Shown: one piece after another, positions 27,104 to 48,361 of the stretch | Numbering within the stretch: position 1 is the first letter of the stretch | Layout of the letters: each line of letters opens with the position of its first letter | Assembly (NCBI RefSeq): GCF_008064665.1 | Contig: NZ_VRZA01000002.1 | Span: 496,001 to 560,000 of the forward strand | Length of the DNA stretch: 64,000 nucleotides | Source of the DNA: Parahaliea maris | Lineage (GTDB): Bacteria; Pseudomonadota; Gammaproteobacteria; Pseudomonadales; Halieaceae | Direction of reading: 5' to 3' | Translations under genes and position numbers: made by a program | Notes under the pieces: model-generated | Database searches by the model: none | What the model was told of the DNA's origin: nothing | What the model saw: only the letters and a program-made list of their open reading frames with translations

Positions 27104-27146
27104 TGTCACACTCTTTGGTCATCCTGTGAACACTGACAGGGCGTTA

Positions 27147-27174: not shown

Positions 27175-27183
27175 GCCGCCGCT

Positions 27184-27918
27184 ATGTGGTCCTTCTTCCA
27201 TAAACTCGGTTCTCCCCCCTGGTTGTATCGCATCGCCGGCAGCATCCTGAGCTGGCTGTTGCCCCTGACCCTGGTGGCGCTTGCGGCAGGGGCGGTGTGG
27301 GGCCTGCTGTACACCGCGCCCGATTTTCGCCAGGGCAACAGCTACCGCATTATCTATATCCACGTTCCCGCTGCGGTGGTGGCTCTCGCCGGGTATTACG
27401 TGATGGCCATCGCCGGCGGTATCAGCCTGATCTGGAAAATGAAAATGGCCGATGTGGCCATGAAGTCCTGCGCGCCGGTGGGCGCCGCCCTGACCTTTAT
27501 CGCCCTGGTGACGGGTTCCATCTGGGGTAAGCCCACATGGGGCACCTGGTGGGTGTGGGATGCCCGCATCACCTCCATGTTGATCCTGCTGTTCCTCTAC
27601 CTCGGGGTCATCGCCCTGTATGAGGCCTACGACAACAAGGACGCGGCGGGCAAGGCCTGTGCCGTCCTGAGCCTGGTCGGTACGGTGAACATTCCCATCA
27701 TCTACAAGTCGGTGGACTGGTGGTACAGCCTGCACCAGCCGGCCTCGATCAAGTTCACCGGCGAATCGAGCATCGACCCCAGCATGCTGTATCCTCTGCT
27801 GTTGATGATCGGCAGCTTCTACGCCCTGTTCACCTGCGCCCTGCTGATGAACATGCGGCTGGAAATTCTGCGCCGCGAGGCCCGTACCGGCTGGGTACGC
27901 AAATTGGTGGGAGCCTGA
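27184..27918 (+). CDS. ccmC: Haem-handling protein CcmC
   Basis: Six-helix inner-membrane protein of 244 residues that loads haem onto CcmE. The WWD signature WGTWWVWD is at 119-126, flanked by the external histidines in YIHVPA (His60) and in the late KSVDWWYSLHQ segment, which ligate haem in characterised homologues. The N-terminus FHKLGSPPWLYRIAG matches the family. It overlaps ccmD (TGATG). Confidence 0.96.
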   Translation: MWSFFHKLGSPPWLYRIAGSILSWLLPLTLVALAAGAVWGLLYTAPDFRQGNSYRIIYIHVPAAVVALAGYYVMAIAGGISLIWKMKMADVAMKSCAPVGAALTFIALVTGSIWGKPTWGTWWVWDARITSMLILLFLYLGVIALYEAYDNKDAAGKACAVLSLVGTVNIPIIYKSVDWWYSLHQPASIKFTGESSIDPSMLYPLLLMIGSFYALFTCALLMNMRLEILRREARTGWVRKLVGA

Positions 27919-28130
27919 TGTATTTCGACAGTTTTCACGCCGCCCTGGTGATGGATGGCCACGGTGCGTTCGTCTGGGCCGCCTATGCGATTACCGCGAT
28001 GGTGCTGATAATTCTGCTGCTGACGCCGGTGCTTCGCAGCCGGCGCCTGCGCCGGGAGCTGGCCGGGGAAATCCGCCGCCGGGAGATGACGCAAACCGGG
28101 AGGGAGGGCCCCCATGCATCCAGTACGTAA
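27918..28130 (+). CDS. ccmD: Haem exporter accessory protein CcmD
   Basis: Small single-pass protein of 70 residues that stabilises the CcmABC complex and aids holo-CcmE release. It has [20 protein letters not shown], typical of CcmD, with the membrane helix running to about residue 37, then a basic tail ([17 protein letters not shown]). Coupled to ccmC at its start and overlapping ccmE by 17 bases at its end. Confidence 0.92.
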
Positions 28131-28575
28131 ACAACGCCTGATCATCGTGCTCTGTGTGGTGGTGTTTTCCAGCGCTGCCATCGGCCTGATGGCCTACGCC
28201 CTGCGCGGCAATATCAATCTCTTTTTCCCGCCGGTCGAAGTGGCAGCGGGCAAGGCGCCGGTGGGCCAGCCGATTCGGGTCGGCGGCATGGTGGTGGACG
28301 GCTCGGTACAGCGCAGCGACAACAGCCTGCATATCCGCTTTGAAGTGACGGACTACCAGGCCTCGGTGCCGGTGGTGTACGAGGGCATCCTGCCGGACCT
28401 GTTTGATGAGGGGCAGGGGGCGGTGGCCGCCGGTGTGCTGGATGAGAACGGTGTGCTACAGGCCACCGAAGTGCTCGCCAAGCACGACGAAAACTACATG
28501 CCGCCAGAAGTGGCCGAGGCCCTGGAGGCCTCCAAAGCCATGGATGCGGCGAAGGCCAAGGGAGCGGGCGAATGA
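28114..28575 (+). CDS. ccmE: Haem chaperone CcmE
   Basis: Periplasmic membrane-anchored haem chaperone of 153 residues. Haem is bound covalently through His124, in [10 protein letters not shown] with the conserved Tyr128 four residues on. The N-terminal anchor is about residues 9-29 and the OB-fold ([14 protein letters not shown] onward) follows. Overlaps ccmD and ccmF. Confidence 0.96.
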
Positions 28576-30548
28576 TTCCGGAGTTTGGGCATTTCTCACT
28601 GATCATCGCCCTGTGCCTGGCGGTGCTGCTGGCCACGGTCCCCCTGTGGGGCGCCTGGCGTCGCAATACCGGCGCCATGGCACTGGCACCCGGGCTGGCA
28701 ATGGGACTGCTGGTGTTTACCGCGATCAGCTTTGTCTGCCTGACCATCGCCTTCCTGCAGGATGATTTCTCGGTCGAGGTCGTTGCCAACAACAGCAACA
28801 GCCTGCTGCCGCCCATCTACAAGTTTTCCGCGGTGTGGGGCAACCACGAGGGTTCCCTGTTGCTGTGGGCCCTGACCCTTGCCGGCTGGACGGCGGCCGT
28901 GGCCACCTTCAGCCGCCAGCTGCCGTTGATGGTACTGTCGCGGGTGCTGGCGGTCATGGGTTTCGTCGGGGTGGGCTTCCTCTCCTTCTCCCTGTTCACC
29001 TCAAACCCCTTTGCGCGGCTGATACCGGGCACCCCGTCCGACGGCCAGGACCTCAACCCGCTGCTGCAGGACCCGGGCCTGATCATTCACCCGCCGATTC
29101 TCTACATGGGTTACGTGGGCTTTTCCGTGGCCTTCGCCTTCGCCATCGCCGCCCTGCTGGGCGGGCGCCTCGACGCCGCCTGGGCCCGCTGGTCGCGGCC
29201 CTGGACCAACGTGGCCTGGGCCTTCCTGACCCTGGGCATCATGCTGGGCAGCTGGTGGGCCTACTATGAACTGGGCTGGGGCGGCTGGTGGTTCTGGGAC
29301 CCGGTGGAAAATGCCTCCTTCATGCCCTGGCTGGCAGGCACCGCGCTCATTCACTCGCTGGCGGTAACCGAAAAGCGCGGCCTGTTCAAAAGCTGGACAG
29401 TCCTGCTGGCGATTTTTGCGTTTTCCCTCAGCCTGCTGGGGACCTTCCTGGTGCGCTCCGGGGTGCTGACCTCGGTGCATGCCTTCGCCACCGATCCCGC
29501 CCGCGGCCTGTTCGTACTGGTGTTCCTGGCCATCGTCGTCGGCGGCTCGCTAACGCTCTACGCCCTGCGCGCGCCTGCGGTCAACAGCCGGGTGGGCTTT
29601 GCCGGCCTGTCCCGGGAGACCCTGTTACTGGTCAACAACGTGGTGTTCCTGGTGGCCACCCTCACGGTGCTGTTTGGCACCCTGTTCCCGCTGCTGATGG
29701 ACGCCCTGGGGCAAGGCAAGTACTCGGTGGGTCCGCCTTACTTCAACGCCGTGTTCGTGCCCCTGATGGCGCTGCTGATTCCCTTTATGGGGCTGGGCCC
29801 GGTGTCGCGCTGGAAGCGCGACAGCGCCAGCCGCTGGAAGGCGGAACTGCTGGTGCCGGCGCTGGCCGCGCTGGCCTGTGGCCTCACCCTGCCGCTGCTC
29901 CACGGTGACTACAACATCTGGGTCGCCCTGGCGCTGGTGCTGGCGGGCTGGCTGTTGCTGGGCCTGGTGCGGGATGTGTGGCAGCGCCTGCGGTCGGCGC
30001 CCTCGCTGGCCCGCGGCCTGCGTCGCACCCCGGCCAGCTATTGGGGCATGGTCCTCGCCCATCTCGGCTTTGCCGCCGCAGTGGTTGGCGTCGTCGTGAC
30101 CAGCCAGTACAACATCGAGCGCGACCTGAAAATGGAAGTCGGGCAGGCGGAAACCCTGGCCGGCTACCGCTTCGAATTTACCGAGCTGGCCAATTTCCGC
30201 GGTCCCAACTACCTCGCTGACGAAGCCCGGTTCGTGGTGACCCGCGATGGCCGGGAAATCGCTCGCCTGGCTCCCCAGAAGCGCCGTTACCTGGCCAGTG
30301 GGCAGATCATGACCGAGGCCGCGATAGACGACGGCCTGTTCCGCGATCTCTTCGTGGCCATGGGTGAACCGGTAGGCCAGGGCGGCGCCTGGGCCATCCG
30401 CCTGCACTACAAACCCATGGTGCGCTGGATGTGGCTGGGGGCGATCATGATGGCCGTTGGCGGCTTCGTTACGGTGGTGGATAAACGCTATCGGCGCCAG
30501 CGCGCGGCGAGTGCGGCAGGGGAGGTGGCCCATGGCGCCCAGGCTTAA
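28572..30548 (+). CDS. ccmF: Cytochrome c haem lyase subunit CcmF
   Basis: Large inner-membrane protein of 658 residues, which transfers haem from CcmE to apocytochromes. The WWD motif WGGWWFWD is at 236-243, followed by [11 protein letters not shown]. Family features WGNHEGS (89-95) and [11 protein letters not shown] are present, and a periplasmic domain precedes the last helix. Length is normal. It overlaps ccmE by four bases and ccmG by 17. Confidence 0.97.
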
Positions 30549-31092
30549 GCTGTTCCTGCCGCTCATCCTGTTTGTGGTGCTGGCCCTGTTCCTGTTTCGC
30601 GGCTTGTCGCTGGACCCGCGGGCGATGCCTTCGGCGCTGATCGACAAGCCGTTTCCCTCCTTTACGCTGCCAGCCCTGCAGCGGGAGCAGACCCTCGACC
30701 GCAGCCTGTTGCTGGGCAAGGTCAGCCTGGTGAACATCTGGGCCACCTGGTGTATCTCCTGCCGCGTCGAGCATCCCTACCTCAACCAGCTGACCGAGGC
30801 CGGGGTGCATATCGTAGGGGTGAACTACAAGGATGACAGCGATGCCGCGAAACGCTGGCTGGCGGATCTCGGTGACCCCTACAGCATCAATGTCGTCGAT
30901 GCCGAGGGTAGCCTGGGCATCGATCTGGGCGTCTACGGCGCGCCGGAAACCTACTTTGTCGATGCCGAAGGGGTGATCCGCTATCGCCATGTGGGTGTTA
31001 TCGACGAACGGGTGTGGAACAGCAAGCTGGCGGCTATCTATCGGGAGATCGGTGGCGAGCTGCCGCAGCAACTGGCGGAGGCATCCCCATGA
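30532..31092 (+). CDS. ccmG: Thiol:disulfide interchange protein CcmG/DsbE
   Basis: Membrane-anchored thioredoxin-like protein of 186 residues that keeps the CXXCH cysteines of apocytochromes reduced in the periplasm. The active site is WCISC (Cys74, Cys77). The anchor is at residues 7-23 and the GVNYKDDSDAAKRWL and GVYGAPETYFVD segments, with the cis-proline, match DsbE. Starts inside the end of ccmF and ends in an ATGA overlap with ccmH. Confidence 0.95.
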   Translation: MAPRLKLFLPLILFVVLALFLFRGLSLDPRAMPSALIDKPFPSFTLPALQREQTLDRSLLLGKVSLVNIWATWCISCRVEHPYLNQLTEAGVHIVGVNYKDDSDAAKRWLADLGDPYSINVVDAEGSLGIDLGVYGAPETYFVDAEGVIRYRHVGVIDERVWNSKLAAIYREIGGELPQQLAEASP

Positions 31093-31544
31093 GAACGCTA
31101 CTTGGCCTGGTCCTGCTGTGTTATGCCCTGGCGGCAGCGGCGGTGATCGAAACCTATGAATTCAGCGACCCGGCGCTGGAAGAACGCTACCACGCCCTGA
31201 GCCAGGAGTTGCGCTGTCCGAAATGCCAGAACCAGAACATCGCCGACTCCAATGCCCCCATCGCCCAGGACCTGCGCAAGCAGCTCTACCAGCAACTGGA
31301 GGCCGGGGCGTCGGACGAGGAGATCCTCGAGTACATGGTGGCTCGCTACGGTGAGTTCGTGCGCTACCGGCCCGAGATGGGCGGCGCCACCCTGATCCTG
31401 TGGCTGGCTCCGCTGTTGTTACTGGTGCTGGCCGCCGGCGTTGCGGTGGCGGTAGTGCGGTCCCGCCGCAATGCCGCCGAGGCGCTGAGTGACGAAGAGC
31501 AGCGCAAGCTGCAGGAAATGCTGGAGCGGGAGCAAGACGCTTGA
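31089..31544 (+). CDS. ccmH: Cytochrome c maturation protein CcmH
   Basis: A 151-residue thiol-oxidoreductase-like protein with the diagnostic LRCPKCQNQNI (Cys43, Cys46), which works on the disulfide of the apocytochrome together with CcmG and CcmF. It has a signal/anchor helix at the start and a second helix near 98-122 (TLILWLAPLLLLVLAAGVAV). This is the short N-terminal form; the TPR part is a separate gene, ccmI. Confidence 0.95.
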   Translation: MRTLLGLVLLCYALAAAAVIETYEFSDPALEERYHALSQELRCPKCQNQNIADSNAPIAQDLRKQLYQQLEAGASDEEILEYMVARYGEFVRYRPEMGGATLILWLAPLLLLVLAAGVAVAVVRSRRNAAEALSDEEQRKLQEMLEREQDA

Positions 31545-32755
31545 CCACTTTTATCCTGGCCTGTGCGGGGCTCGTCCTGCTCAGCGGGCTTTTCTATCTG
31601 TTTCCCTCCCGCCGCGGTAGCGGTGCACAGGAGCTGGAACGCGCCAACTTCGAGTGGTACCGCCTGCGCCAGCAGGAGCTGGCAGAGCAGGGCGACGATG
31701 CCCTCGACGACGATGCGCGCCTGCGCCTGCTGGAAGAGGAGCAGGCGCGGGCTGCCAACAAGTCCGAGCCGATGCCGGAGAGCCGGCGCTTTCCCGGCTG
31801 GCTGTTGCTGCCGGTGGTGGCGGTGGGTTCCGGTGCGTTGTACTACCTGCTCGGCGCCGCTCCCGACGTCCTCCTCAATGCCCGCCTGCAGCAACTGGAT
31901 GAAACCGCGACCGCCACCGAAGTCTACTCGGTCATGTCTGCGGTAGAGCAGCGCTCCTCCCAGCGTCCTGACAACCTGCACTATCGCGCCCTGCTGGGCC
32001 GCTATTACATGGGGCAGGAGGAGTACGTACAGGCGGCCGATACCTACACTGCCATGGCCGAGGCCGCGCCGGGGGATGCCTATGCCCTGGCCTACGCAGC
32101 CCAGGCCCGCTACCTGGCAGCTGGCCGGGTACTGGACGGTGAATCCCAGCGCATGGCGGAAGCGGCGCTGGCGATCAATCCGCACCAGCGTACGGCCCTG
32201 GGCCTGCTGGGCATGGTGTCTTTCGAATCCGGGCAGTATCGCGCCGCGATCCAGTACTGGGAGCGCCTGCGCGCGACCGAGCAACCGGGCTCCGAAAGCG
32301 ACAACATGATCGCGGGCGTCATCGCCCAGGCCCGGGAGCGTCTCGGCGAAGCGCCGGAGGAGGCGGTTGAACCCGCCGCGGCACCGGTTGCCAGTGGCGA
32401 GTCGGTTGCCTCGGCAGGCGTCACCGTTCACGTGAGCCTGCCGGCGGGTGCCAGCGTGAACCCGGATGACACGGTGTTCGTACTGGCCCGCAATCCCACC
32501 AGTGGCAGCCGCATGCCCATTGCGGTACAGCGTCTGCGCGCGGCCCAGCTGCCCATGACCCTGCGCCTGGATGACCGGCACTCCATGGCCGGGCAGAAAA
32601 TCTCCACCAGTGACGAAGTGATTGTCGTGGTGCAGGTATCACCCAGCGGCCAGCCCGGTGAGTCCAATGCCAGCTGGCTTGGGCAGGGTGGTCCGCTGCA
32701 GCCTTCGGCCTCCGGTGAGCCCGTGGAGATCGAACTGACGCAACGGCGGGGATAG
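31541..32755 (+). CDS. ccmI: Apocytochrome c chaperone CcmI
   Basis: A 404-residue protein that holds apocytochrome c C-termini for haem ligation. Two membrane helices (about 1-20 and 86-108) precede TPR-like repeats around residues 125-260 (YRALLGRYYMGQEEYVQAAD and similar) and a C-terminal periplasmic domain. The start is a TTG at 31541 overlapping the ccmH TGA, the only sensible start because the frame opens there. It closes the ccm operon. Confidence 0.88.
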   Translation: MTTFILACAGLVLLSGLFYLFPSRRGSGAQELERANFEWYRLRQQELAEQGDDALDDDARLRLLEEEQARAANKSEPMPESRRFPGWLLLPVVAVGSGALYYLLGAAPDVLLNARLQQLDETATATEVYSVMSAVEQRSSQRPDNLHYRALLGRYYMGQEEYVQAADTYTAMAEAAPGDAYALAYAAQARYLAAGRVLDGESQRMAEAALAINPHQRTALGLLGMVSFESGQYRAAIQYWERLRATEQPGSESDNMIAGVIAQARERLGEAPEEAVEPAAAPVASGESVASAGVTVHVSLPAGASVNPDDTVFVLARNPTSGSRMPIAVQRLRAAQLPMTLRLDDRHSMAGQKISTSDEVIVVVQVSPSGQPGESNASWLGQGGPLQPSASGEPVEIELTQRRG

Positions 32756-35117: not shown

Positions 35118-35138
35118 CGTTTTCCTACAGACGTTCCC

Positions 35139-36125: not shown

Positions 36126-36133
36126 GGTTCGTG

Positions 36134-37653: not shown

Positions 37654-37678
37654 CCGGTCAGGGTAGCTCCCTGACCGG
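37654..37678. terminator. Bidirectional hairpin terminator between convergent genes
   Basis: CCGGTCAGGG (37654-37663) and CCCTGACCGG (37669-37678) form a perfect ten-base stem with a five-base loop. It lies between the secreted-protein gene and the decaheme gene and includes the stop codon of the latter. No T-run follows on either strand, so it may act by itself or with Rho. Confidence 0.6.
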
Positions 37679-39955
37679 ATGCACCTCCGCGACATCGGCC
37701 GTTCGGCCCTCGCCGTGACACACGCTGCACTGCTCGACAACTTCCGCGTTGTCGAGGGCGGCCTGTGTCGTGTCGAAGCTACCGCCATTGGCGGTCATGT
37801 GGGCCCGGGCCACGCTGTCGTCATGGCAGCTCGAGCATACGGCGGTGGTCGGGGTGACTACCGTATCGTCCCGCGGGTCGTCGTGCAGGTCGCCGGTATC
37901 CACCGTGCTGCCGAGCACGGTACTCGCCAGGGGCAGGGTAAAGCCGCTCTCTGTATGACAGGCGCGGCAATTGCCGATATTGCCGGGGTAGTGCACCGTG
38001 TCTTCGTCATACACGTAGGTGGTGAAGCCGCGGAAGCCAACGATCTGCAGGGGGTTCTCGCGGATACCCGCGGCGTGGATGCCGTGAATCATGGTCTTGA
38101 AGTCCAGTGATTCTTCTGCCTTGCCATCGGTCGGTGGTGTGGCGGCGATTGCGCGGACTTCGCGGTCGGTATTGCGGGGGTTGTGGCAGGTCACACAGCT
38201 GTCGATATTGTTACTGCGGTTATCGCCGTGCAGCGACAGAGACTGGTGACAGACCAGGCACTGGCCGATGGCCACTGACTGGCGGCGGGCCGTCGCCTGG
38301 CCATCCGCTTCGTCAATGGAGAAGAAGCCGTGGGCATTGTCCAGCGGGACTCTCAGGCTCTCGCCTTCGTCATCCTCTATCACAGCCCGCCCTTCAACAA
38401 CGGCTACGCCACTGCCGGAGGCTGCGATACCCGGCGCCGTTGAAGCGTCAGGGATCGGCTGGCCGAGGGTGACCCGGAAGCTGCCGTCACCGTTGGGGGT
38501 CGAGCCGGAGGCGCTGACCGCAACCGAACTGGCGTCGTCGGCACCGTTACCGGTGTTGTGATAATCGCCGGTGTCCCAGGCCACGCGAACGTTGAGTGAC
38601 GCGCCGGAGCCTGTCCACACCGGGTCGTTCAGCAGGTCGTAGTCCTCGCCGGTCTGCGGGTTGCTCACCCGGAAATTGATGGTGGGCGCCTCCCCTGGTG
38701 CACCGCCATCCACACTGATGACCTCCGCAGCAAACTGCGCACGGGCTTCGTCCACGGGAATGCTGTGGCTGTCGGCGATGCTGCCGACGAAGCCGGTGCT
38801 GGAGTGGCAGCTGGCGCAGCGGCTGTCGTCTTCCTGGCCACCGGCGTGGCGGCTGAAGTCCAGGTCGTCGTGGCAACTGCCGCAGGCCGCCTGGCTGGGG
38901 TACTCGTTCCAGTTGTCGCCCTGGGCGGTCAGCAGCAGGTCGTCGCGATCCCCTATGGTGCCGGTGCCGACGTGACAGTTGGTGCAATTGCGAATGTCCT
39001 GGGGATAGTGCAGCAGGGAATAGTCGTGAGCCCTGCTGCCAAATCCATAGATCACGTATTCGCCCCCGGCCTGGACACTCGGCAGGTTGGCGCCGCGGTG
39101 AATTTTGTGGGCCATGACCTTGAGGTCGACCGTATTGCCGCTGTTGGCGTCGGTCGTGCCCGGGTTGTGGCAGGTGACGCAGTATTCGATCTCCACCCGG
39201 CCGCTGCCGTGGAGCGCGAGCTTGTCGTGGCAGCGATTGCAGTTGCTGGTGGCGGCGATGTCGCGATGGAGTATGCCGTCGGTGGCGCCGCTGGCCGGTA
39301 CCCAGTCGTACACCGGGTTGGCAGTTCCGCCGCTGTTACCGAATTGAATCGCGATGCGATGGGTAAGGCCGGTTTCTACGCTCAGGTCCAGGCCTTCGGA
39401 TTCCGCCTGGGCCAGAATATCCTCCGGAAGGGTAGAGATATCGGTGGCAAAACGGTAACGGTAGCTGCCGTCCCCGCTATTGGTCAGTTCGCCACTGGAT
39501 TCGGTGGTGGCCTGCAGTTTCGGTTCGGTGCCCGGCCCCACGCTCCCGGCCTGTTCGATGCGGTTGATATAGGACTGCCAGTTTCCGGTGAAATTGCCCA
39601 GTGGGCTGGTGCGTAACTTGGCGATGATGAAACGTACGTCGTCTCCGGTCAGGTCGGTGATGGCGATGTTGTTTTCGTTGGCGAGCTGGAAGTCCACCAC
39701 CGGTTGACCATCGTCCGGGATCGTTGCGCCGGTGATGGCGGCCCGCAACTCCAGGGCCTCGGCGTAGGGTGCCGGGCTGGGCTCGGGTACTTCCGGCGGC
39801 AGGGGTACCTGGCCCCCGGGGGCCTCGGGTCCGGGCTCGACGCCGGCGGCGCGGTCACCGCCACCGCCGCCGCCACAGGCAGCCAGCAGACAAACAGCCA
39901 GTGCCATTACGGCCTGGCGCAGCGGTCGTCCCCAGTGTCGTCGTATCGGTTTCAT
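37658..39955 (-). CDS. OmcA/MtrC-type decaheme surface lipoprotein
   Basis: A 765-residue lipoprotein (leader ending LAVCLLAAC) with ten CXXCH haem sites: CNRCH, CVTCH, CTNCH, CGSCH, CASCH, CLVCH, CVTCH, CRACH, CSSCH, CSVCH, split into two groups of five by a beta-rich domain, as in the OmcA/MtrC family. In Shewanella such proteins sit on the outer face of the outer membrane and reduce metals, flavins or electrodes. Start is the ATG at 39955, with AGAGGAC upstream; the longer frame adds six residues in front of the leader. It is the last gene of a five-gene electron-transfer operon. Confidence 0.92.
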   Translation of the reverse strand: MKPIRRHWGRPLRQAVMALAVCLLAACGGGGGGDRAAGVEPGPEAPGGQVPLPPEVPEPSPAPYAEALELRAAITGATIPDDGQPVVDFQLANENNIAITDLTGDDVRFIIAKLRTSPLGNFTGNWQSYINRIEQAGSVGPGTEPKLQATTESSGELTNSGDGSYRYRFATDISTLPEDILAQAESEGLDLSVETGLTHRIAIQFGNSGGTANPVYDWVPASGATDGILHRDIAATSNCNRCHDKLALHGSGRVEIEYCVTCHNPGTTDANSGNTVDLKVMAHKIHRGANLPSVQAGGEYVIYGFGSRAHDYSLLHYPQDIRNCTNCHVGTGTIGDRDDLLLTAQGDNWNEYPSQAACGSCHDDLDFSRHAGGQEDDSRCASCHSSTGFVGSIADSHSIPVDEARAQFAAEVISVDGGAPGEAPTINFRVSNPQTGEDYDLLNDPVWTGSGASLNVRVAWDTGDYHNTGNGADDASSVAVSASGSTPNGDGSFRVTLGQPIPDASTAPGIAASGSGVAVVEGRAVIEDDEGESLRVPLDNAHGFFSIDEADGQATARRQSVAIGQCLVCHQSLSLHGDNRSNNIDSCVTCHNPRNTDREVRAIAATPPTDGKAEESLDFKTMIHGIHAAGIRENPLQIVGFRGFTTYVYDEDTVHYPGNIGNCRACHTESGFTLPLASTVLGSTVDTGDLHDDPRDDTVVTPTTAVCSSCHDDSVARAHMTANGGSFDTTQAALDNAEVVEQCSVCHGEGRTADVAEVHPVRELP

Positions 39956-39983
39956 AGTCCTCTGCCCTCTCAAACCATGGGGG

Positions 39984-42254
39984 TCATTGCCAGCGGTAAA
40001 TCACCGACGCCCCCAGGTAGTGGATGCTGTCGTTGGGATTGCGCTGGCCGGAGCCGAGCACCTTGTCGAGGGTATCTACCTCGACGTTGCGCCAGGCCCA
40101 GTCGTTGGTGTCGTAGCGGTAGTACTGGTAGTTCAGCGCCAGGGTCAGGTCGTCGCGCAGGTGCCATTGGCCTGTGGCGTCCAGCTGCTGCAGTTGGGTA
40201 TCCACGTCCGGCAGGTCAGCGGGGTTGAGATCCGCGGCGCCCGCGGCGGACATGCGCTGGCGGGCCCGGGTATCCACAAAACTGTAGGCCAGTTGAAGGT
40301 CCAGGCGTTCCGCCGGTTGCCACTGCAGGGAGGCGCCGAGATTGAGGCTGTCGTCCTGGGCCGCCAGCGACCAGTTGCGAGTGGGATCGCTGGACTGGGG
40401 CAGGGGCGGCGTGACGGCGAAGGCATTCTTTTCCTGGCCGCCGCGGAAGGCGCGAGAGCGCTGGTCCGCCCGATAGCGATCGAAACCGCCGTACAGGGTG
40501 GCGGTCAGTGCAGCAGCGGGGTGATAGCTGGCGCTAAGCTGGAGGGTCTGCCAGTCGGCGCCGGTCAGCCCCAGCTCGGTCTTGTCGTAATCGTCATCCC
40601 GCCAGCGCAGGTCGAGGTCGAAGCTCCAGCTGGCGATGGGGCTGTAGTTCAGCCCCAAGCGGGCGCCCAGCTGTTCGCGGTTGGCGAGGTAAAACTGGCT
40701 GAGCTCTGGGTGATTGTTAAAACGCTGATTGTCGGGCGTCGCGTTGATCAACCCGGCGTCGAGCAGGGCGTAGTAGGACTGATCCCAGTAATAGGTACTG
40801 GCGGCGCGATCCGCCCAGCTCAGTTCCAGGCGACCCTGCAGTCCCGCGGCGAGCCTGATCCTGTAAGAGGCCGTGAGGCGGTCCTCCTCGGTGGTTTCCA
40901 CCGCGGCGTTACGCCGGTCGATCTCCTCGTATTCATACTCCAGGCCAAACCGGTGGCGGCTGGACAGGCGGTAGCGAAGCTCGCCGCCGATTTGCTGTGA
41001 CAGGTAATCGTGGGCGGTGTTATACACCGCGAGAGCGTCCCGGGGCTGGCTGCCGCCATCGCCGCGAATGTAGAGGTAGCGGTTGCGGTCAACGTCGTAA
41101 TCACGTTCCCGGGCGCGGAACCAGCCCTCCACCTCCAGCCCGGACAGGGGGCGCCACCAGAGCTTGCCATTGACCACCGAGCTCGCTACCTCGCCGTCCA
41201 GGCTAGCGGTCGGTAGCGGCTGGGTGACATTCAGGGCGCTGTTTACGCTGTAATCCAACAGGGCCTCATCCTGGGTAGCCAGGGCGTGGTAGCCGTCAAA
41301 GCTCAGGCGCAGGGTCGGTGCCAGCAACCAGGTACCGCTGAGCCGCCCGCTCCACTGTTCGTTGTCCGGTGCCAGGGCCAACCCGCCGTAGCCCTGGGGG
41401 TAGCGTACCGCGGGGCTGAAGCTGCTGTAGGGGTTCTGCCAACTCAGCAATGAGTCCTGGTTGTCAAAACCGCTGTATTGCAGCATGGCATCCAGTTGCA
41501 GGGCGTTGCCGGCAAAGCGCAGGCCCAGCTCGCCCTCCTGGTTGCGGTAATCCACGGGGTAGGGCAGGAGGGTGGCGTCGGCAGAGGCGCCATCGATATA
41601 GATACCGGCGCCGATATCACCCGTGCCCTGCTTCTCTTCGTACAGCCAGCTGCCATAGAGCATCCAGGCTTCGTTGAGCCTGCCTTCGAGGGCCAGGCGA
41701 TAACGGTCGCGCTCCAGTTCCCGGTTCAGGGTTCTGAGGCTGCTCTGCAGATTCTGGAAACCACTGGTTTGCAAGGCACTTTGCCAGTCGCCGGGGAGTG
41801 TGAGGGCGGTGGTTCCCCGAAAGGGGGTGGCGCCACTGTCGTTGCGTACCTGGCGCTGTGAATCCAGTTCAAGTTCCAGTTTCAGGCGCTGGCCGAGGCC
41901 CCAGGTCACCCGGCCCTCCCGGGTAGGCAGCCCCAGGTCCGTCAACTGGATATCCCAGGTGCTGTCAGCGTTGCCGTAATCGCGCCACTGCAGGTTGCCG
42001 ATCAGGTTCACGCCCTGCTCATCCAGCCCGTTGTACTGGCCGAAGGTGAAATTGTCGTCGCTGGTATAGGCCGCGCCCAGCTCGACCGCGCCGCGGTAAT
42101 CGGTTTGCCAGCGGGTGCTGAGGGGGCGGGTCTCCCGTGCGAGGGGGGCGAAAGGATCCCCGGGATCTGCGGCCTGGGCCGGGAGCACGAGTGCGCACAG
42201 GGTCAGGCCGCAGCCCGGCCAGCGCAGGGAGTTGCCAGCGCCTCGGCGAATCAC
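39984..42254 (-). CDS. MtrB/PioB-type outer-membrane beta-barrel
   Basis: A 756-residue beta-barrel protein. A signal peptide (GCGLTLCALVLPAQA) is followed by many alternating amphipathic strands with aromatic ends, no cysteine that I can see in the mature chain, and the C-terminal strand GASVIYRWQ. In MtrCAB systems this protein encases the periplasmic decaheme and fixes the surface decaheme. It lacks the CXXC that Shewanella MtrB carries near its mature N-terminus. The start is a GTG at 42254 overlapping the stop of the upstream cytochrome by four bases (GTGA), which fits the operon order. Confidence 0.88.
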   Translation of the reverse strand: MIRRGAGNSLRWPGCGLTLCALVLPAQAADPGDPFAPLARETRPLSTRWQTDYRGAVELGAAYTSDDNFTFGQYNGLDEQGVNLIGNLQWRDYGNADSTWDIQLTDLGLPTREGRVTWGLGQRLKLELELDSQRQVRNDSGATPFRGTTALTLPGDWQSALQTSGFQNLQSSLRTLNRELERDRYRLALEGRLNEAWMLYGSWLYEEKQGTGDIGAGIYIDGASADATLLPYPVDYRNQEGELGLRFAGNALQLDAMLQYSGFDNQDSLLSWQNPYSSFSPAVRYPQGYGGLALAPDNEQWSGRLSGTWLLAPTLRLSFDGYHALATQDEALLDYSVNSALNVTQPLPTASLDGEVASSVVNGKLWWRPLSGLEVEGWFRARERDYDVDRNRYLYIRGDGGSQPRDALAVYNTAHDYLSQQIGGELRYRLSSRHRFGLEYEYEEIDRRNAAVETTEEDRLTASYRIRLAAGLQGRLELSWADRAASTYYWDQSYYALLDAGLINATPDNQRFNNHPELSQFYLANREQLGARLGLNYSPIASWSFDLDLRWRDDDYDKTELGLTGADWQTLQLSASYHPAAALTATLYGGFDRYRADQRSRAFRGGQEKNAFAVTPPLPQSSDPTRNWSLAAQDDSLNLGASLQWQPAERLDLQLAYSFVDTRARQRMSAAGAADLNPADLPDVDTQLQQLDATGQWHLRDDLTLALNYQYYRYDTNDWAWRNVEVDTLDKVLGSGQRNPNDSIHYLGASVIYRWQ

Positions 42255-43126
42255 CGCGTGAGCCTCGCGCCGGAGGGGTGATTGGAGCCGTGGACCTGGC
42301 CGTGGCAGTTCAGGCAGTTCTTGCCCAGCACGTTCTGGTTGGGGCTGCCGCCGGCCAGCCCCTCGGCCCCGTAGGGCAGGCTGGGGTGGAAGGCGGCGGC
42401 GTGGCACTGCTGGCACAGGGCGGGCCCGCGGGCCGTCAGCAGGCGATCGTGGACCGAGCCGTGGGGTTGGTGACACAGACTGCAGTCCTCACTGGCCGGG
42501 GGGTGCTCCCAGAGGAATGGACCGCGTTTTTCACTGTGGCAGCTCAGGCAGTTGTCGTTGAGCGTGACCTGGCGCAGCAGTGCCGGCGTGGAGGATCCGT
42601 GGGGGTTGTGGCAATCAGTGCATTCGGTTTTGCCCTCGGCAATCGGGTGGCGCGATGGCAGCCGCAGCTCCGCCCGCACGCTGCTGTGGCAGTTCAGGCA
42701 GCCCGTGGTGGCCGGGTCCTGGGCCACGCTGAACTGTGACTGCCGGTGGAGGGTGTGGCAGTCACTGCAGGCGAGGTCGGCCGATTCGTGGCTGCTGCCC
42801 GCCCAGTGCATCTGCTCACCACCCGCGTGACAGCCGAGGCAGGCGCCACTGGCATCCGTGGACGCCAGCGGCCAGCGCGGGCCAAAACTGAGGTCAGGGG
42901 CCGCGTTGGTGGGGGCGGCGACGTGTGAGGCGCTGCTGCCATGGCAGGCCATGCAGGCATCGCTGCCACCGCCCGCCAGGCTGGCGTGGGGTGTGTGCAG
43001 AATGGCGTTTACCGGGTGGTCGGCGCTGTCCAGGTGGCAGTCGAGGCAACTGTCGGCGGCGCTCGCGCTAACACTCCACAAGCACAGGAGCAGTATGGCG
43101 AACAGGCCCTGTAATCGCAGTGGCAT
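42251..43126 (-). CDS. DmsE/MtrA-type periplasmic decaheme cytochrome c
   Basis: A 291-residue cytochrome with a signal peptide (LFAILLLCLWSVSASA) and ten CXXCH sites: CLDCH (27-31), CMACH, CLGCH, CSDCH, CLNCH, CTDCH, CLSCH, CSLCH, CQQCH, CLNCH. Size and haem count match the DmsE/MtrA family, which carries electrons through the MtrB barrel. Start at the ATG at 43126, four bases after the preceding gene. Its stop overlaps the barrel gene. Confidence 0.93.
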   Translation of the reverse strand: MPLRLQGLFAILLLCLWSVSASAADSCLDCHLDSADHPVNAILHTPHASLAGGGSDACMACHGSSASHVAAPTNAAPDLSFGPRWPLASTDASGACLGCHAGGEQMHWAGSSHESADLACSDCHTLHRQSQFSVAQDPATTGCLNCHSSVRAELRLPSRHPIAEGKTECTDCHNPHGSSTPALLRQVTLNDNCLSCHSEKRGPFLWEHPPASEDCSLCHQPHGSVHDRLLTARGPALCQQCHAAAFHPSLPYGAEGLAGGSPNQNVLGKNCLNCHGQVHGSNHPSGARLTR

Positions 43127-43130
43127 CGTC

Positions 43131-44723
43131 TTACTCGGCCTTGAAGTCCGTATCGTCGCCCTGGAAGCCGAGCGTCTGGGGCAGTGATACCCAGTGCTTT
43201 CCGCCCGGGTTGTCGCTGCCGTGCAGGGCGATACCGAAGGTGTAGGTGTCGTTCTCCAGCAGGGCGCGCTGGCCTTCACTGCCCGCCATCGGCCGGCGTA
43301 GCACGACCTGCCAGCGTCCGTCGCGATAGTTTGCGCTGCCCGTCAGCGTGCTGGCTTCATGCCACACGGGTTGGGAAAGCAGTACAGCGCTCTCTATCCG
43401 GCCGGATGCTTCACCCTGCAGCTTCACGCGCCACAATTCCCCGTACTGACCCGCGTCCTGCAGGGCGCGCAGTTCTCCCGCGTCCTTCAGCAGGGCCGGG
43501 CGGCCTATCGCCTGTTGCTGGGCCCGGGAGGCCAGCAGATATTTGCCGGTGTCCTGGCCGCGGTCGCGACTCATGCCGGGCATATCGCTGTGACAGGCGG
43601 CAAAACAACCGGCGCGCTGGATGGTCGGGGTCTGGCTGTCTCCCCAGAGCAGGGCGATATCGGCATCGTCCGGTGGGCCGGCCCATGCCAGTTGGACTTC
43701 CAGTGTATTGCCGCTGCGGCCAACGCTGACTTGCACCGCGCGGGTGGCCGGCCGGAAGTCACCGGCGAGGTCGCTGCCCATGCGGGCTTCATCACCGCGG
43801 TGACACTGCTGGCAACTGGCACCGTGACGCAGGGGCTGTGAACCGGGGTGTATGCCCAGCAACCACTCGCTGTCGGACTGGCCGGGGAAGAACAGGTTGA
43901 CTTCCTTGCTGGCGACGGCGGTGGGCACCATGGGGGGGACGGCATCGGCAGGGCCGTGAGCGATCCCCTGGTGGCAATCCAGGCAGCTGCGGTCTTCGCG
44001 AACCATGACTTTGTGGTAGCTCCTGGCCTTGTCGCTCACCGTTGGCTCATTGGCCATGGCGGTCAGGTCGTGGCAGGTGCGACAGCCTTCGGAGCGTGTT
44101 TCCAGCGCAGTGGCCACGACCGGTTGCGCATCGTGGGGGCTGTGGCAGCTGGTGCAGGCCGGGTTGTTGTCGCGGTGACTCGCCAGCCCGTGGACGCCGT
44201 CACGCTGCACCTTGTGGCACACCGTGCAGACCTCGGTTTGCGAGGAACTCGCCAGCACCTTGTCCGGCATCTGGTGAATGTCGTGGCAGGTAACGCAGGT
44301 GATGTCTGCCTGGTTGTGGGGGGCACTGTCCCAGTGCCCGACCGGTTTGTCCTGGTGGCAGGCCAGGCACTGGCCGTCCTGGCTGTTCTTGGCGGCCGTC
44401 CAGCGCGGGCCGAAACTGATTCCGGGGGCTACCTGGGTTGGCGCGCCGGCGTGGCCCGCGCTGGGGCCGTGGCAGCTTTCACAGCCGCGATTGGCCATCG
44501 GTGTGTCCGGGTTGTCGGCCTGTCCGTGGGGGCTCTCCAGCATGGGATGCACCGGAGAGTCAGGGCCGAAATCGTGGCAACCCAGGCACTGCTGGCTACC
44601 GCCCGCGGAGAAGCCGTCCGCCGATTGCGCGGGAGCCTGCGCCGCAAGCAGGAGTAGCAGCGCCAGCAGGGGGAGGCGCCACCAGGTGGCGGGTGAAATG
44701 GCGACACTCGGCGTTTGACCCAT
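43131..44723 (-). CDS. Multiheme cytochrome c with nine CXXCH, one CX3CH and an EB_dh-like C-terminal domain
   Basis: A 530-residue exported protein (signal LLALLLLLAAQAPAQSA). Residues 46-308 hold nine CXXCH sites (CLGCH, CESCH, CLACH, CVTCH, CTVCH, CTSCH, CRTCH, CLDCH, CQQCH) in a DmsE/NapC-like arrangement. From about residue 325 the sequence changes to a beta-rich domain similar to ethylbenzene-dehydrogenase-type haem domains, carrying CFAACH at 373-378, a CX3CH form. Within the operon it lies between the CymA-type and MtrA-type genes, so it probably carries periplasmic electrons. The ATG at 44723 has AAAGGA upstream. Confidence 0.88.
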   Translation of the reverse strand: MGQTPSVAISPATWWRLPLLALLLLLAAQAPAQSADGFSAGGSQQCLGCHDFGPDSPVHPMLESPHGQADNPDTPMANRGCESCHGPSAGHAGAPTQVAPGISFGPRWTAAKNSQDGQCLACHQDKPVGHWDSAPHNQADITCVTCHDIHQMPDKVLASSSQTEVCTVCHKVQRDGVHGLASHRDNNPACTSCHSPHDAQPVVATALETRSEGCRTCHDLTAMANEPTVSDKARSYHKVMVREDRSCLDCHQGIAHGPADAVPPMVPTAVASKEVNLFFPGQSDSEWLLGIHPGSQPLRHGASCQQCHRGDEARMGSDLAGDFRPATRAVQVSVGRSGNTLEVQLAWAGPPDDADIALLWGDSQTPTIQRAGCFAACHSDMPGMSRDRGQDTGKYLLASRAQQQAIGRPALLKDAGELRALQDAGQYGELWRVKLQGEASGRIESAVLLSQPVWHEASTLTGSANYRDGRWQVVLRRPMAGSEGQRALLENDTYTFGIALHGSDNPGGKHWVSLPQTLGFQGDDTDFKAE

Positions 44724-44749
44724 GCTGAAAATCCTTTGCTGGTCTGCGG

Positions 44750-45322
44750 CTAGTGGCTCGCTGCCACACCGGGCAGGTTGCGCGGGTGCGCAATACCGGC
44801 GTGACAGTCGATACAGGTTTTGCCCTGGCTCTCCATGGAGAGATGGTATTTGCGGGCCTTGGCGGTTTGAGAAGTTTCCAGCATCCGCTCTACTTCGTGG
44901 CAGTTGCGGCACTCCTGGGAGTTGTTGGCCTTGAGACGGGCCACTTCCCGGGCCTTCATGGCAGGAGCGTGGGCGGCGTACTTCTCGGGCGTGTCGATGA
45001 CCCCGGTGAAGTGACCCCAGACCTCGCGCGAGGCCTGGATCTTGCGGATCATCTTGGGCACAAATTCCTTCGGCACATGGCAGTCGGAACAGGAGGCGTG
45101 GACGCCGCTGGGGTTGCTGAAGTGGGTGGTTTCCTGCAGCTGCGGGAAGGGATTGCTGCCCATTTCATGGCAACTGGTGCAGAACGCTTCGGTGTTGGTG
45201 GCATGCATGGTGGCGTTGAAACCGAGCACGCCCACGACGCCGAGTACCAGACCGGCACCCACCAGTGCGAGCACCGAGTATTTCGCTGACGGGCGTAGCA
45301 AACCTCGCAACCAGGACAGCAT
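44750..45322 (-). CDS. NapC/NirT (CymA)-type tetraheme quinol dehydrogenase
   Basis: A 190-residue membrane-anchored cytochrome. One helix (about 15-37) is followed by four CXXCH sites at 48-52 (CTSCH), 78-82 (CSDCH), 138-142 (CRNCH) and 170-174 (CIDCH). Size and spacing fit the NapC/NirT/CymA family, which oxidises menaquinol or ubiquinol and feeds periplasmic cytochromes. It is the first gene of the operon that ends with the surface decaheme, so it is the likely entry point for electrons. Confidence 0.94.
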   Translation of the reverse strand: MLSWLRGLLRPSAKYSVLALVGAGLVLGVVGVLGFNATMHATNTEAFCTSCHEMGSNPFPQLQETTHFSNPSGVHASCSDCHVPKEFVPKMIRKIQASREVWGHFTGVIDTPEKYAAHAPAMKAREVARLKANNSQECRNCHEVERMLETSQTAKARKYHLSMESQGKTCIDCHAGIAHPRNLPGVAASH

Positions 45323-45510: not shown

Positions 45511-47052
45511 CTAGAAGGATACGTCCCACTGCAGGCGGACGCGGTTGTCCGAGACATCCCGGGAGAGGAACTCGTCTTCCAGGGTGAGGTGGGAGTAGTC
45601 CAGGGTCAGCTTGTTGTTGTGACCGTTGAAGAACCAGTTCAAGCCCATTGTGTACTCCCTGCGCTCGTTCTCCAGCATGCGATCGCTCGCGTTGGGCTCA
45701 TCCACGAAGGCGTAACGGAAGGCGACCTCGAGCGGCGCTGGCACTACCGGGAACAAGTGGTGGAAGAAGTAGCCGGCCTGAGCGTAGCCGCCGGTCAGTT
45801 CCTCCTCAGTACCCCGGTCTGAGTCCTTGATGGTTTTGTTGTGATATTCCTGCAGGGCAGAGAAACCGCGCCACTTGAAGGAAAACTCCTGGGTCCACTG
45901 GTCGATCTCGTACAGCCCTGGCTGGTCGACGAGAGGTGATGCGTAGCCGTCGAGGCGGCCGCAACCGGAGGATGACCAGCGGGTGCAGACACCCTCGTTG
46001 GTGAAGCCGGCAAAGGCGAGGGCGCCGGTGGGCTGTTCGGTGTATTCGACATCGGTCATGCGCCAGGGCATATCCCGGCCGAGGAAGTTCCATTGCAGGC
46101 GACCCATGTACATCAGGTTGTCGTCGTCGTTGGCAACACCGCGGCCCTCGCCGGTGAAGGCGCCCACGTAGTAGCGCATGTCGGCCGGCGTTTCCTGGAA
46201 CAAGTGGCCGCGCAACTGCACGCCCATCTGGCGATCGATGGTAAACACCCGGTTGGCGATGGAGCGTTCGACAAATTGCTGGCGGCCGGAGGAGGCAACA
46301 CGTTCCTGGTTGAGGTCCACCTTCCACTGGCCGAGGCGCAGGGTCGCCCAGTCCCATTTGGCGATGTCGGCGCGCCAGGTGATCAGGCGGGAACTGGCCG
46401 CGTAGCTCTCGTCGTCCGAGTCCCGGGTGGGCTGCAGATCCACCTCGAAGTAGTACTTCAGCCAGGGCTGGTAGCCGTGGCCGCCAATTTTCATCCGCAG
46501 CCGGCGAGTCTCAAAGTCGCGGGTCTCGGGTTCCTCAAAGCTGGCCACCTGGCGGGGGTCGCTCCGAAAGGGCTCGCTGTAGCGCATCTGTGCGCGCCAC
46601 TGCAGGTTGGTCTGGAAACGGCCGTCTTTGGTCTCGAGGCGGAAGCCCTTGTCGGTGTAGTCGGCATTGACCGGGAAGCTGTCGGCGACCTGGCTGGCGA
46701 AGCTCTGCATGAAGCCGCCCTCGCTGTCATCGCTCAGGCGCCTGTCTACCGCATCGGCAACGGCGACATCGATCTGGCGGGCCACGTCAGGGGATACCGG
46801 CTGTTCGGCCAGCTTGGCGGGGGCCGGCGGTGGTGCCGGTGAGGCAGCGGCGCCGCCGAGGATGTCCTCGCTGGTCAGGGCCGGTTTCTGCATCAGGCTG
46901 TCGTACTGTTCCTGGGTGATCACGCCATTACCCAGGAGAATGTCCAGCAGTGCCTTGTCTGCTGCGGCAGCGGGCACGGTGGTTCCGGCCAGCGAAAACA
47001 GTAGAGGCACGCCGGCAAGGGAGCGGAGCGGCGAAGGCTTCTTCACGGTCAT
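45511..47052 (-). CDS. Phosphate-selective-porin (OprO/OprP) family porin
   Basis: A 513-residue outer-membrane porin. The signal peptide ends near AGTTVPAAAA, followed by DKALLDILLGNGVITQEQYD, the short N-terminal helical segment typical of OprP/OprO-like porins, and a beta-barrel ending NRVRLQWDVSF, with the usual C-terminal Phe. The family takes up phosphate or polyphosphate in Pseudomonas; members elsewhere are less well defined. The start is the ATG at 47052 after AAAGGATG. The gap upstream has a triple Pho-box-like repeat, which supports a phosphate role. It is near, but not part of, the cytochrome operon. Confidence 0.85.
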   Translation of the reverse strand: MTVKKPSPLRSLAGVPLLFSLAGTTVPAAAADKALLDILLGNGVITQEQYDSLMQKPALTSEDILGGAAASPAPPPAPAKLAEQPVSPDVARQIDVAVADAVDRRLSDDSEGGFMQSFASQVADSFPVNADYTDKGFRLETKDGRFQTNLQWRAQMRYSEPFRSDPRQVASFEEPETRDFETRRLRMKIGGHGYQPWLKYYFEVDLQPTRDSDDESYAASSRLITWRADIAKWDWATLRLGQWKVDLNQERVASSGRQQFVERSIANRVFTIDRQMGVQLRGHLFQETPADMRYYVGAFTGEGRGVANDDDNLMYMGRLQWNFLGRDMPWRMTDVEYTEQPTGALAFAGFTNEGVCTRWSSSGCGRLDGYASPLVDQPGLYEIDQWTQEFSFKWRGFSALQEYHNKTIKDSDRGTEEELTGGYAQAGYFFHHLFPVVPAPLEVAFRYAFVDEPNASDRMLENERREYTMGLNWFFNGHNNKLTLDYSHLTLEDEFLSRDVSDNRVRLQWDVSF

Positions 47053-47362: not shown

Positions 47363-48361
47363 TCAGCGCAACAGGGTGTCGAGTACCAACCCCAGCAGGA
47401 ACAGCCCACTGAAGGGGCGGGTATGGCGAAAGGCGTGGGCTGAGAACCACAGGGGCCAGATGGCCTCGGGGTAGCCCTCCGGGCGCTCCGCGGGTTTGGG
47501 GCGACCAAACACGGCCCACAGGTGCCGCAGTTTCGGCAGTGCCAGCAGCACCAGCAACAGGGGCCAGCCGAAACTGCCGGTGGCTACCAGCAGCACGCAC
47601 AGCAGGTACTGGGCCGCCAGCATGAGGCGGGTTGCCTGCCGCGACAGCTTGTCCCCGAGCAGTACCGGCAGGGTATGGACGCCCTTGGCGAGATCGGCGG
47701 GGGCCTTGTCAGTGTGCTTGCCGAATAGCACCGTGGTCGGGCCCAGGGCGAACACCACGCTGAGCCAGCATACGTCCCAGCTCCAGTGGCCCGCCGTCAC
47801 ATAGTAGGTGCCACCCACCATCAGAGGGCCCCATACCAGCAGTACCGCCGGCTCGCCGAGGCCGTAGTACTTGAGTGGCCAGGTGTAGAACAGCACGAAG
47901 AAGGCGCCGGCCAGCATGAGATCGAGGGTCAGTCCGCTGCGCAGCCAGACCAGCCACAGGCCGAGGGCAATGGCCACGCCGCCGGTGAAGCCGAGGTAGC
48001 CCCAGAACTGGCGCTGGCTGACCAGGCCGTCCTCCAGCACGTGAACGCCGTACTGGTTGCGGTAGTAGTTGTTGCGGTCGATGCCGCGGCGTGAATCGGT
48101 GTAGTCGTTGAGCAGGTTGTTGGTGGCATGGGCAAACAGCAGGCCGAGGGTGGCCAGCAGCCAGGGGGTGAGGGCAAAGGCGCCGGCGCGCCAGGCCAGC
48201 AGGCCTCCCAGGGCCGCGGCAGAGAGCGTCATCACCAGTACCGACGCCCGACAGGCGATCAGCCAGCGGGCGACGATGTCGAGGGACTCCCATTCTGCCG
48301 GTTGCAGTTTGGGCATCTTGTTCAGGGCTCGGCCCCACATCTGCAGGTCTAAGGTCGCCAT
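47363..48361 (-). CDS. UbiA-family prenyltransferase (MenA-like)
   Basis: A 332-residue polytopic membrane protein of the UbiA superfamily. The first Mg-diphosphate motif is NNLLNDYTDSRRG (residues 81-93) and the second is GKHTDKAPADLAKG near 215. Eight or nine membrane helices are apparent. The NDYTD form resembles MenA (1,4-dihydroxy-2-naphthoate prenyltransferase, menaquinone synthesis) more than UbiA, but no menaquinone gene is next to it, so substrate is tentative. Divergent from smc. Confidence 0.75.
   Translation of the reverse strand: MATLDLQMWGRALNKMPKLQPAEWESLDIVARWLIACRASVLVMTLSAAALGGLLAWRAGAFALTPWLLATLGLLFAHATNNLLNDYTDSRRGIDRNNYYRNQYGVHVLEDGLVSQRQFWGYLGFTGGVAIALGLWLVWLRSGLTLDLMLAGAFFVLFYTWPLKYYGLGEPAVLLVWGPLMVGGTYYVTAGHWSWDVCWLSVVFALGPTTVLFGKHTDKAPADLAKGVHTLPVLLGDKLSRQATRLMLAAQYLLCVLLVATGSFGWPLLLVLLALPKLRHLWAVFGRPKPAERPEGYPEAIWPLWFSAHAFRHTRPFSGLFLLGLVLDTLLR

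What the first reader, a model, noticed from the sequence alone, without database searches (positions are those of the whole stretch)
37658..45322. Complete Mtr-type extracellular electron transfer operon
Seen directly: five minus-strand genes with gaps of 28 bases or less encode, in order, a tetraheme NapC/CymA-type cytochrome, a nine-CXXCH cytochrome, a decaheme DmsE/MtrA-type cytochrome, a cysteine-free barrel and a decaheme lipoprotein. That is an inner-membrane-to-surface chain (33 CXXCH sites plus one CX3CH). Known from Shewanella: CymA, MtrA, MtrB and MtrC do this job. The inference is that this aerobe-looking organism can send electrons to an outside acceptor, or take them up. The extra cytochrome between CymA and MtrA is not part of the standard set.
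Basis: partly seen in the sequence, partly recalled or inferred. Interest (0 to 1): 0.75.

Follow-up and report, generated by a model that had tools for sequence, protein, structure and literature searches.

The report
Bacterial outside-wiring operon with orphan quinone enzyme
This is a real five-gene electron conduit across a marine bacterium's cell envelope, of a kind already described in its family, and its overlooked companion is a vitamin-K-type prenyltransferase that accompanies this kind of conduit in nearly every genome tested, although known routes to vitamin K are missing there.

Summary
In detail: a tight minus-strand operon (gaps 26, 4, -4, 28 nt) encodes a NapC-type tetraheme, a 9 CXXCH + 1 CX3CH cytochrome ('X'), MtrA, MtrB and MtrC; the last three pass their NCBIfam cut-offs. 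The reading is largely right but published: Baker et al. 2022 (PMC8805035) describe this 'Group 6' cluster of Halieaceae, X included ('mtrA-DOMON'). X fuses an MtrA-like part, a NapC-like heme segment and an ethylbenzene-dehydrogenase/DOMON heme domain; all ten heme sites are invariant in 10 aligned proteins.

Beyond that: two genes upstream of napC lies a MenA-like prenyltransferase (P0007). It is rare (13 of 194 genomes of the order; no other genome in a 369-genome class sample) yet present in 12 of 13 X-type Mtr genomes tested. In two it overlaps the X gene by 4 nt. In those 12, MenD and MenB are below cut-off and MqnA/D unmatched; the exception passes both. A relative with a split DOMON protein has a different MenA-like gene beside its Mtr genes. 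Against: six genomes have P0007 without Mtr. Best reading: outward quinol-to-surface conduit. Boldest: it runs on its own quinone, made from a scavenged or unknown ring.

The parts
44750..45322 (-). NapC/NirT-family tetraheme, inner-membrane quinol oxidoreductase (CymA-like role)
   Evidence: PF03264 220.4 bits; TIGR02161 238.7, below cut-off 310.6; 4 CXXCH
43131..44723 (-). X ('mtrA-DOMON'): MtrA-like part (42-218), NapC-like heme segment (202-258), ethylbenzene dehydrogenase/DOMON heme domain (356-505); 9 CXXCH + 1 CX3CH
42251..43126 (-). MtrA, periplasmic decaheme
   Evidence: TIGR03508 256.7 bits, cut-off 192.2; 6r2q_A 2e-63
39984..42254 (-). MtrB/PioB barrel, GTG start, overlaps mtrA by 4 nt
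   Evidence: TIGR03509 329 bits, cut-off 240.05; PF11854 354 bits; 6r2q_B
37658..39955 (-). MtrC/OmcA-family decaheme surface lipoprotein
   Evidence: TIGR03507 521.6 bits, cut-off 209.3; MtrF 3pmq, OmcA 4lmh
47363..48361 (-). P0007, MenA-like UbiA-superfamily prenyltransferase; companion gene, in other genomes part of the mtr operon
   Evidence: PF01040 99 bits; MenA models up to 94.4 bits, all below cut-off; co-occurrence; junctions
45511..47052 (-). Porin_O_P-type porin between P0007 and napC; own unit likely (gaps 310 and 188 nt); part in the system unproven
   Evidence: PF07396 76 bits; ExtI model 39.6, cut-off 150; gaps
25821..32755 (+). Cytochrome c maturation (ccm) cluster near the operon
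   Evidence: ABC_tran, CcmB, CcmC-type, CcmE, CcmH, CcmI-type by Pfam; CcmF (28572-30548) and CcmG (30457-31092) by eye only

Best explanation
A Group-6-type Mtr conduit. A NapC-family tetraheme takes electrons from a membrane quinol; X (MtrA-like part + NapC-like heme segment + DOMON heme domain) carries them across the periplasm to MtrA, which sits in the MtrB barrel and passes them to the surface decaheme MtrC, most likely to an outside acceptor when oxygen is short. Shown: gene order, family membership, heme sites, conservation. Inferred: localisation, docking of X to MtrA, direction, acceptor. The MenA-like prenyltransferase is a recurrent companion and probably supplies or tunes the quinone used (inferred, less certain).
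For: Curated cut-offs passed for MtrA, MtrB, MtrC; 6r2q matched by all three; same order in 7 of 11 loci, two more cut by contig ends; all nine CXXCH and the CX3CH of X invariant in 10 of 10 aligned proteins, 9 + 1 sites in 13 of 13 full-length X proteins; X combines MtrA-like and NapC-like parts, as a go-between would; ccm genes nearby; Baker et al. propose the same roles.
Against: No activity data. Halieaceae strains in one paper are listed with ubiquinone Q-8, whose potential is high for ferric-oxide reduction (recalled). G158 lacks the DOMON domain of X. G106 and G158 show no P0005-type napC before X, so the quinol step differs there. A Haliea MAG titled Biocath_Gamma_022 could point to uptake instead.
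Confidence: 0.77

Rival explanations
1. The conduit runs inward: electrons from a reduced mineral, a cathode or partner cells enter through MtrC and reach the quinone pool and the oxidase.
For: A Haliea MAG with this cluster is titled Biocath_Gamma_022; reported Q-8 suits uptake energetically (inference); MtrB is kin to PioB by the shared family model.
Against: RuBisCO in 1 of 17 genomes searched (G173), not in this one; no mtoC/mtoD-like gene recognised in the operon (which do not test for them by name).
Confidence: 0.25
2. The NapC protein simply uses ubiquinol and the MenA-like gene is an unrelated neighbour with another product.
For: Six genomes carry P0007 without MtrB or OmcA/MtrC (0 of 6); in this window a porin gene and gaps of 310 and 188 nt separate it from napC; P0007 is below every MenA cut-off; related genomes share both genes partly by descent.
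Against: 12 of 13 X genomes have it against 13 of 194 in the order; 4-nt overlaps with X in G106 and G158 and a 54-nt gap to napC in G180 and G200; G114 has a different MenA-like gene beside its Mtr cluster.
Confidence: 0.5
3. X is not a wire but a terminal reductase, sensor or docking partner: its DOMON domain meets a soluble substrate or enzyme.
For: The domain resembles heme subunits of ethylbenzene dehydrogenase and nitrite oxidoreductase (on a low-confidence model), which partner molybdenum enzymes.
Against: No molybdenum-enzyme subunit among the eight proteins scanned around the operon; ten invariant heme sites and the MtrA-like part point to electron transfer; G158 does without the domain.
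Confidence: 0.1

Closest known systems
Group 6 mtrCAB clusters of Halieaceae (Baker et al. 2022, PMC8805035; section 8 part 1 and passages read)
   Same: mtrCAB with a nonaheme MtrA-family DOMON cytochrome and an inner-membrane tetraheme; single mtrC in Halieaceae; one member (Parahaliea aestuarii HSLHS9) beside a native ccmA-I operon
   Different: Here a tenth, CX3CH heme site is shown to be invariant; the MenA-like companion is not named in that main text (no hit for UbiA or prenyltransferase)
Shewanella CymA-MtrCAB
   Same: MtrA, MtrB and MtrC families; NapC-type quinol oxidoreductase; S. baltica 6r2q matched
   Different: X in the operon, cymA-like gene in the operon, no CX8C pair in MtrC, no men or futalosine route detected
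MenA (1,4-dihydroxy-2-naphthoate prenyltransferase)
   Same: UbiA superfamily; matches E. coli MenA (1.8e-13 over 219 residues), not E. coli UbiA; both Asp-rich motifs kept
   Different: Below every MenA equivalog cut-off; 19 rows set apart from E. coli and Neiella MenA by long branches; rest of the pathway not detected
FLEET-type extracellular electron transfer of Lactiplantibacillus plantarum (PMC10746273; passages)
   Same: A DHNA prenyltransferase gene (dmkA) in the EET locus of an organism lacking the rest of the pathway; imported DHNA drives EET
   Different: Gram-positive flavin-based route without Mtr; dmkA mutants there still performed EET, somewhat reduced

Membership tests
MtrCAB | MtrA, MtrB, MtrC over curated cut-offs and contiguous | tested here: met
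MtrCAB | Ten CXXCH in MtrA and in MtrC; lipobox on MtrC | tested here: met
   lipobox by eye
MtrCAB | Electron exchange with an outside acceptor or donor | not testable with these tools
   needs mutants and electrodes
MtrCAB (Shewanella subtype) | CX8C pair in MtrC/MtrF | tested here: not met
   absent in the alignment to MtrF 3pmq; no non-heme Cys beyond the N-terminal part in 8 of 8 MtrC orthologues
CymA / NapC-NirT | NapC/NirT profile | tested here: inconclusive
   PF03264 220 bits over cut-off; TIGR02161 238.7 below cut-off 310.6
Group 6 mtrCAB | MtrA-family DOMON cytochrome and tetraheme beside mtrCAB; a single mtrC | tested here: met
   definition
Group 6 mtrCAB | Place in the concatenated MtrCAB tree | not tested
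   no such tree was built; only trees of X and P0007
MenA equivalog | Score over a MenA model's cut-off | tested here: not met
   94.4 vs 264 (NF004751); 54.4 vs 102.15 (TIGR00751)
MenA equivalog | Two Asp-rich motifs of MenA type | tested here: met
   alignment with E. coli MenA, by eye
MenA equivalog | Rest of a naphthoate route in the genome | tested here: not met
   MenD over cut-off in 1 of 16, MenB in 1 of 20, both Neiella; MqnA/D 0 of 16

The most novel reading that the evidence does not exclude
This Mtr conduit runs on its own quinone. In bacteria with no detected menaquinone route, the MenA-like enzyme prenylates a scavenged naphthoate (or a ring from an undescribed route) into a low-potential quinone that the NapC protein or X uses, so that extracellular respiration is tied to cross-fed vitamin-K precursors. 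A different MenA-like gene beside the split-DOMON Mtr cluster of G114 suggests the pairing arose more than once.
Probability: 0.3. Interest if true: 0.78.

Novelty: new member of a known kind. Interest (0 to 1): 0.46.

Why it matters
The operon extends a published group. The prenyltransferase link bears on a plain question: how do bacteria reported with ubiquinone-8 drive an Mtr chain that in Shewanella runs on menaquinone (recalled)? If the enzyme makes a dedicated quinone, Mtr transfer depends on a second, possibly cross-fed pool, and horizontal spread of mtr would need such a gene wherever men genes are missing. The one X genome tested without P0007 has MenD and MenB, as that idea predicts, though it is a single genome. 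One quinone extraction from a cultured carrier would test it.

Tried and rejected
Set aside: Calvin-cycle electron uptake (RuBisCO in 1 of 17 genomes, not this one). Chlorophyll synthase as identity of P0007 (21.5 bits against 313). 4-hydroxybenzoate UbiA (no significant match to E. coli UbiA). FNR or CRP control: the window's napC upstream has no FNR-like site better than 3 mismatches; 6 of 8 napC upstream regions have one with at most 2, against 21 of 400 random window stretches, but three of the six are close relatives, lengths differ and the background is not AT-rich intergenic DNA; none of four upstream regions of operon-first prenyltransferase genes has one. Promoter and terminator scan near chance (3 vs 1.7; 6 vs 7.4). 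Neighbours of P0007 in genomes without Mtr gave no common pathway; most were named by eye, not by profile.

The AlphaFold model of X is poor (pLDDT 56.1, pTM 0.43); only the DOMON match is used. MtrA in MtrB was not modelled. Not tested: menaquinone genes in Mtr genomes without X and in G114 (12 of 12 genome searches used); P0007 in the genome of L030.

Searches show a split DOMON protein and a different MenA-like gene there. For this I raised the odds of the bold reading from 0.27 to 0.30. G031's two genes both lie at contig ends, so 'elsewhere' became 'cannot be judged'.
Full report
Five minus-strand ORFs fill 37658-45322. With the most plausible starts the gaps are 26, 4, -4 and 28 nt, and there are 33 CXXCH plus one CX3CH. 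The barrel is cysteine-free once its signal-peptide region is removed.

Families. MtrC (TIGR03507 521.6 bits, cut-off 209.3), MtrB (TIGR03509 329, cut-off 240.05) and MtrA (TIGR03508 256.7, cut-off 192.2) pass their thresholds. S. baltica 6r2q is matched by A, B and C. The first gene is NapC/NirT-family by Pfam (220 bits) but misses the NCBIfam cut-off (238.7 vs 310.6), so 'CymA' is a role, not a proven identity. The genome has one OmcA/MtrC match, this one.

The extra cytochrome, X. Residues 42-218 match the first two thirds of the MtrA model (129.4 bits, below cut-off), 202-258 the C-terminal heme segment of NapC, and 356-505 the ethylbenzene dehydrogenase heme domain (43 bits, cut-off 33.3); 10 of 10 aligned proteins match that domain. 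The nine CXXCH, the CX3CH (C373, C377, H378) and M381 and M384 are invariant in 10 of 10; 13 of 13 full-length X proteins carry 9 + 1 sites. A tenth heme is likely (inference). The model is poor (pLDDT 56.1), but Foldseek finds EbdC 2ivf_C (3.1e-9) and the NXR heme subunit 7b04. The module varies: in G158 X stops before the DOMON domain (8 CXXCH), and in G051 and G114 a separate protein with one CXXCH and one CX3CH carries it beside mtrA and mtrB.

Relatives. The genome-contig scan gave 11 loci: seven with the complete order, two short contigs (L028, which has the same coordinates as contig C151 of G031 and is taken as the same genome; L030), and two distant multiheme clusters (L034, L035). 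Titles name Haliea, Kineobactrum, Litorirhabdus, Seongchinamella, Neiella and several MAGs. L031 (Neiella) and L032 (a Pseudomonadales MAG) have a second mtrC in line, as Baker et al. state for non-Halieaceae members.

What is known. Baker et al. 2022 (PMC8805035; [quoted passage not shown] This window has a ccm cluster at 25821-32755, so it is that genome or a close relative (inference). The finding as first written is published.

What I did not find in print. That paper's main text has no hit for UbiA or prenyltransferase (supplements not read), and searches listed no paper that joins such an enzyme to Mtr, as far as titles and abstract starts show. At 48361-47363 lies P0007, a UbiA-superfamily protein that matches E. 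coli MenA (1.8e-13 over 219 residues), not E. coli UbiA, and keeps both Asp-rich motifs, but stays below every MenA cut-off.

Co-occurrence. P0007 orthologues: 13 of 194 genomes of the order, 1 of 369 in a class-wide sample, that one being this genome (E <= 1e-40; the weakest orthologue has 1.7e-91). All six X-type genomes of the 194 have it (G000, G031, G106, G158 with truncated X, G173, G180); so does G051 (split DOMON). Of seven further X genomes six have an orthologue of 57-74% identity; Neiella has only a 28% match. Together 12 of 13.

The other Mtr genomes. MtrB gave 21 matches in 194 genomes: 12 over cut-off, three substantial below it (G051, G077, G105) and six marginal (E 1e-5 to 7e-4; left out). 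Besides the seven P0007 carriers, eight have a real MtrB and no P0007 orthologue. I read the surroundings of these eight. Seven show neither an X or DOMON match nor a P0007-like one in the 6-12 kb fetched (G046, G077, G082, G090, G093, G105, G119; G082 and G119 are short contigs, and G119 is 74% complete). The eighth, G114 (83% complete), has on one strand mtrB, mtrA, a split DOMON protein, an 85-residue NapC piece with two CXXCH, and a 300-residue prenyltransferase 171 nt upstream of that piece. This enzyme is only 31% identical to P0007 over 204 residues; its ten NCBIfam matches are nine MenA-named models and one named prenyltransferase, none over cut-off. So 8 of 8 DOMON-type Mtr genomes in the sample (fused, truncated or split) hold a MenA-like gene, seven of one type, one of another; 0 of 7 without it hold the P0007 type. 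Hypergeometric values for X and P0007, made before G114 was read, are 2.5e-8 by genome, 1e-5 by genus and 1.2e-3 by family, not corrected for descent; 47 families was read off the handles and is approximate.

Operon evidence. P0007's gene overlaps X by 4 nt in G106 (ATGA) and G158 (GTGA) and lies 54 nt before napC in G180 and G200; here a porin gene and gaps of 310 and 188 nt stand between. In G031 both genes lie at contig ends and adjacency cannot be judged. In G173, G194, G195, G196, G197 and G199 it lies elsewhere. In G199 a 102-residue ORF with three CXXCH lies directly upstream of it.

Against. Six genomes carry P0007 with no MtrB match (G003, G048, G070, G111, G126, G184) and no OmcA/MtrC match (0 of 6), so the enzyme has a use outside Mtr or outlasts it; G070 shares a genus with G031 and G126 with G173. 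On the P0007 tree the X-type rows need three changes, so they are not one clade.

Menaquinone. MenD passes its cut-off in 1 of 16 genomes and MenB in 1 of 20, both Neiella (G198); every genome has weaker matches, as expected of large enzyme families (best other MenB-type: G051, 242.7 bits, cut-off 342.7). MqnA/D: 0 of 16. A paper on a Halieaceae isolate lists ubiquinone Q-8 for it and the compared strains (PMC6440738, passages). So a MenA-like enzyme sits in genomes with no detected route to MenA's substrate. In L. plantarum dmkA lies in the EET locus of an organism that lacks the rest of the pathway and uses imported DHNA, although dmkA mutants still performed EET, somewhat reduced (PMC10746273, passages). 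In Mesorhizobium huakuii MK-7 was reported under microaerobic and UQ-10 under aerobic conditions (PMC3237581, abstract). Both show that a second quinone can be conditional; neither shows it here.

Mechanism. I take electrons to run from quinol through the NapC protein and X to MtrA in MtrB and on to MtrC (0.77 for the conduit, less for direction). RuBisCO was found in 1 of 17 genomes, G173, which argues against Calvin-cycle uptake here; a MAG titled Biocath_Gamma_022 keeps uptake open. MtrC lacks the CX8C pair of MtrF and 8 of 8 orthologues have no non-heme Cys beyond the N-terminal part, so a switch that depends on that disulfide (recalled from Shewanella work) should be absent.

Verdict. Confirmed and, as an operon, already described; the prenyltransferase association is the part worth following.

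Noticed in passing
L025, L026, L027 upstream of napC: Shared FNR-like site TTGATCTSGCACAA about 100-117 nt before the end of the stretch scanned; the window has only a 3-mismatch site.
   Followed up: partly
window 47052-47372 (upstream of the porin gene): CRP-like site with one mismatch, TGTGAACGTCATCTCA; 4 of 400 random window stretches did as well.
   Followed up: no
L034:9305-12420: Desulfuromonas MAG: neighbouring ORFs with 26 and 16 CXXCH, both with repeated MtrA-like matches.
   Followed up: no
L035: Krumholzibacteriia MAG: cluster of multiheme ORFs, one with 6 CXXCH and a CX3CH.
   Followed up: no
L031:14716-17037 and L032:14711-16951: Extra MtrC-family proteins with two pairs of non-heme Cys spaced CX12C, unlike the Group 6 MtrC beside them.
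   Followed up: no
L087:6111-7987: Genome G106: divergent pair beside the operon, an 8-CXXCH protein and a distant NapC (27% identity), probably the 'ohc' and tetraheme of Baker et al.
   Followed up: partly
L095:9792-10100: 102-residue ORF with three CXXCH directly upstream of the P0007 orthologue in G199.
   Followed up: no
window 57657-60662: Two-gene 2-oxoacid:ferredoxin oxidoreductase (POR_N/POR and TPP_enzyme_C).
   Followed up: no
window 32808-36760: TonB-dependent receptor, FecR and ECF sigma factor between the ccm cluster and the mtr operon.
   Followed up: no
window 36905-37642: 245-residue ORF just past mtrC on the other strand; no Pfam or NCBIfam match at E 0.1.
   Followed up: no
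L104 (G173): The one RuBisCO large-subunit match among 17 genomes, in an X-type Mtr genome.
   Followed up: no
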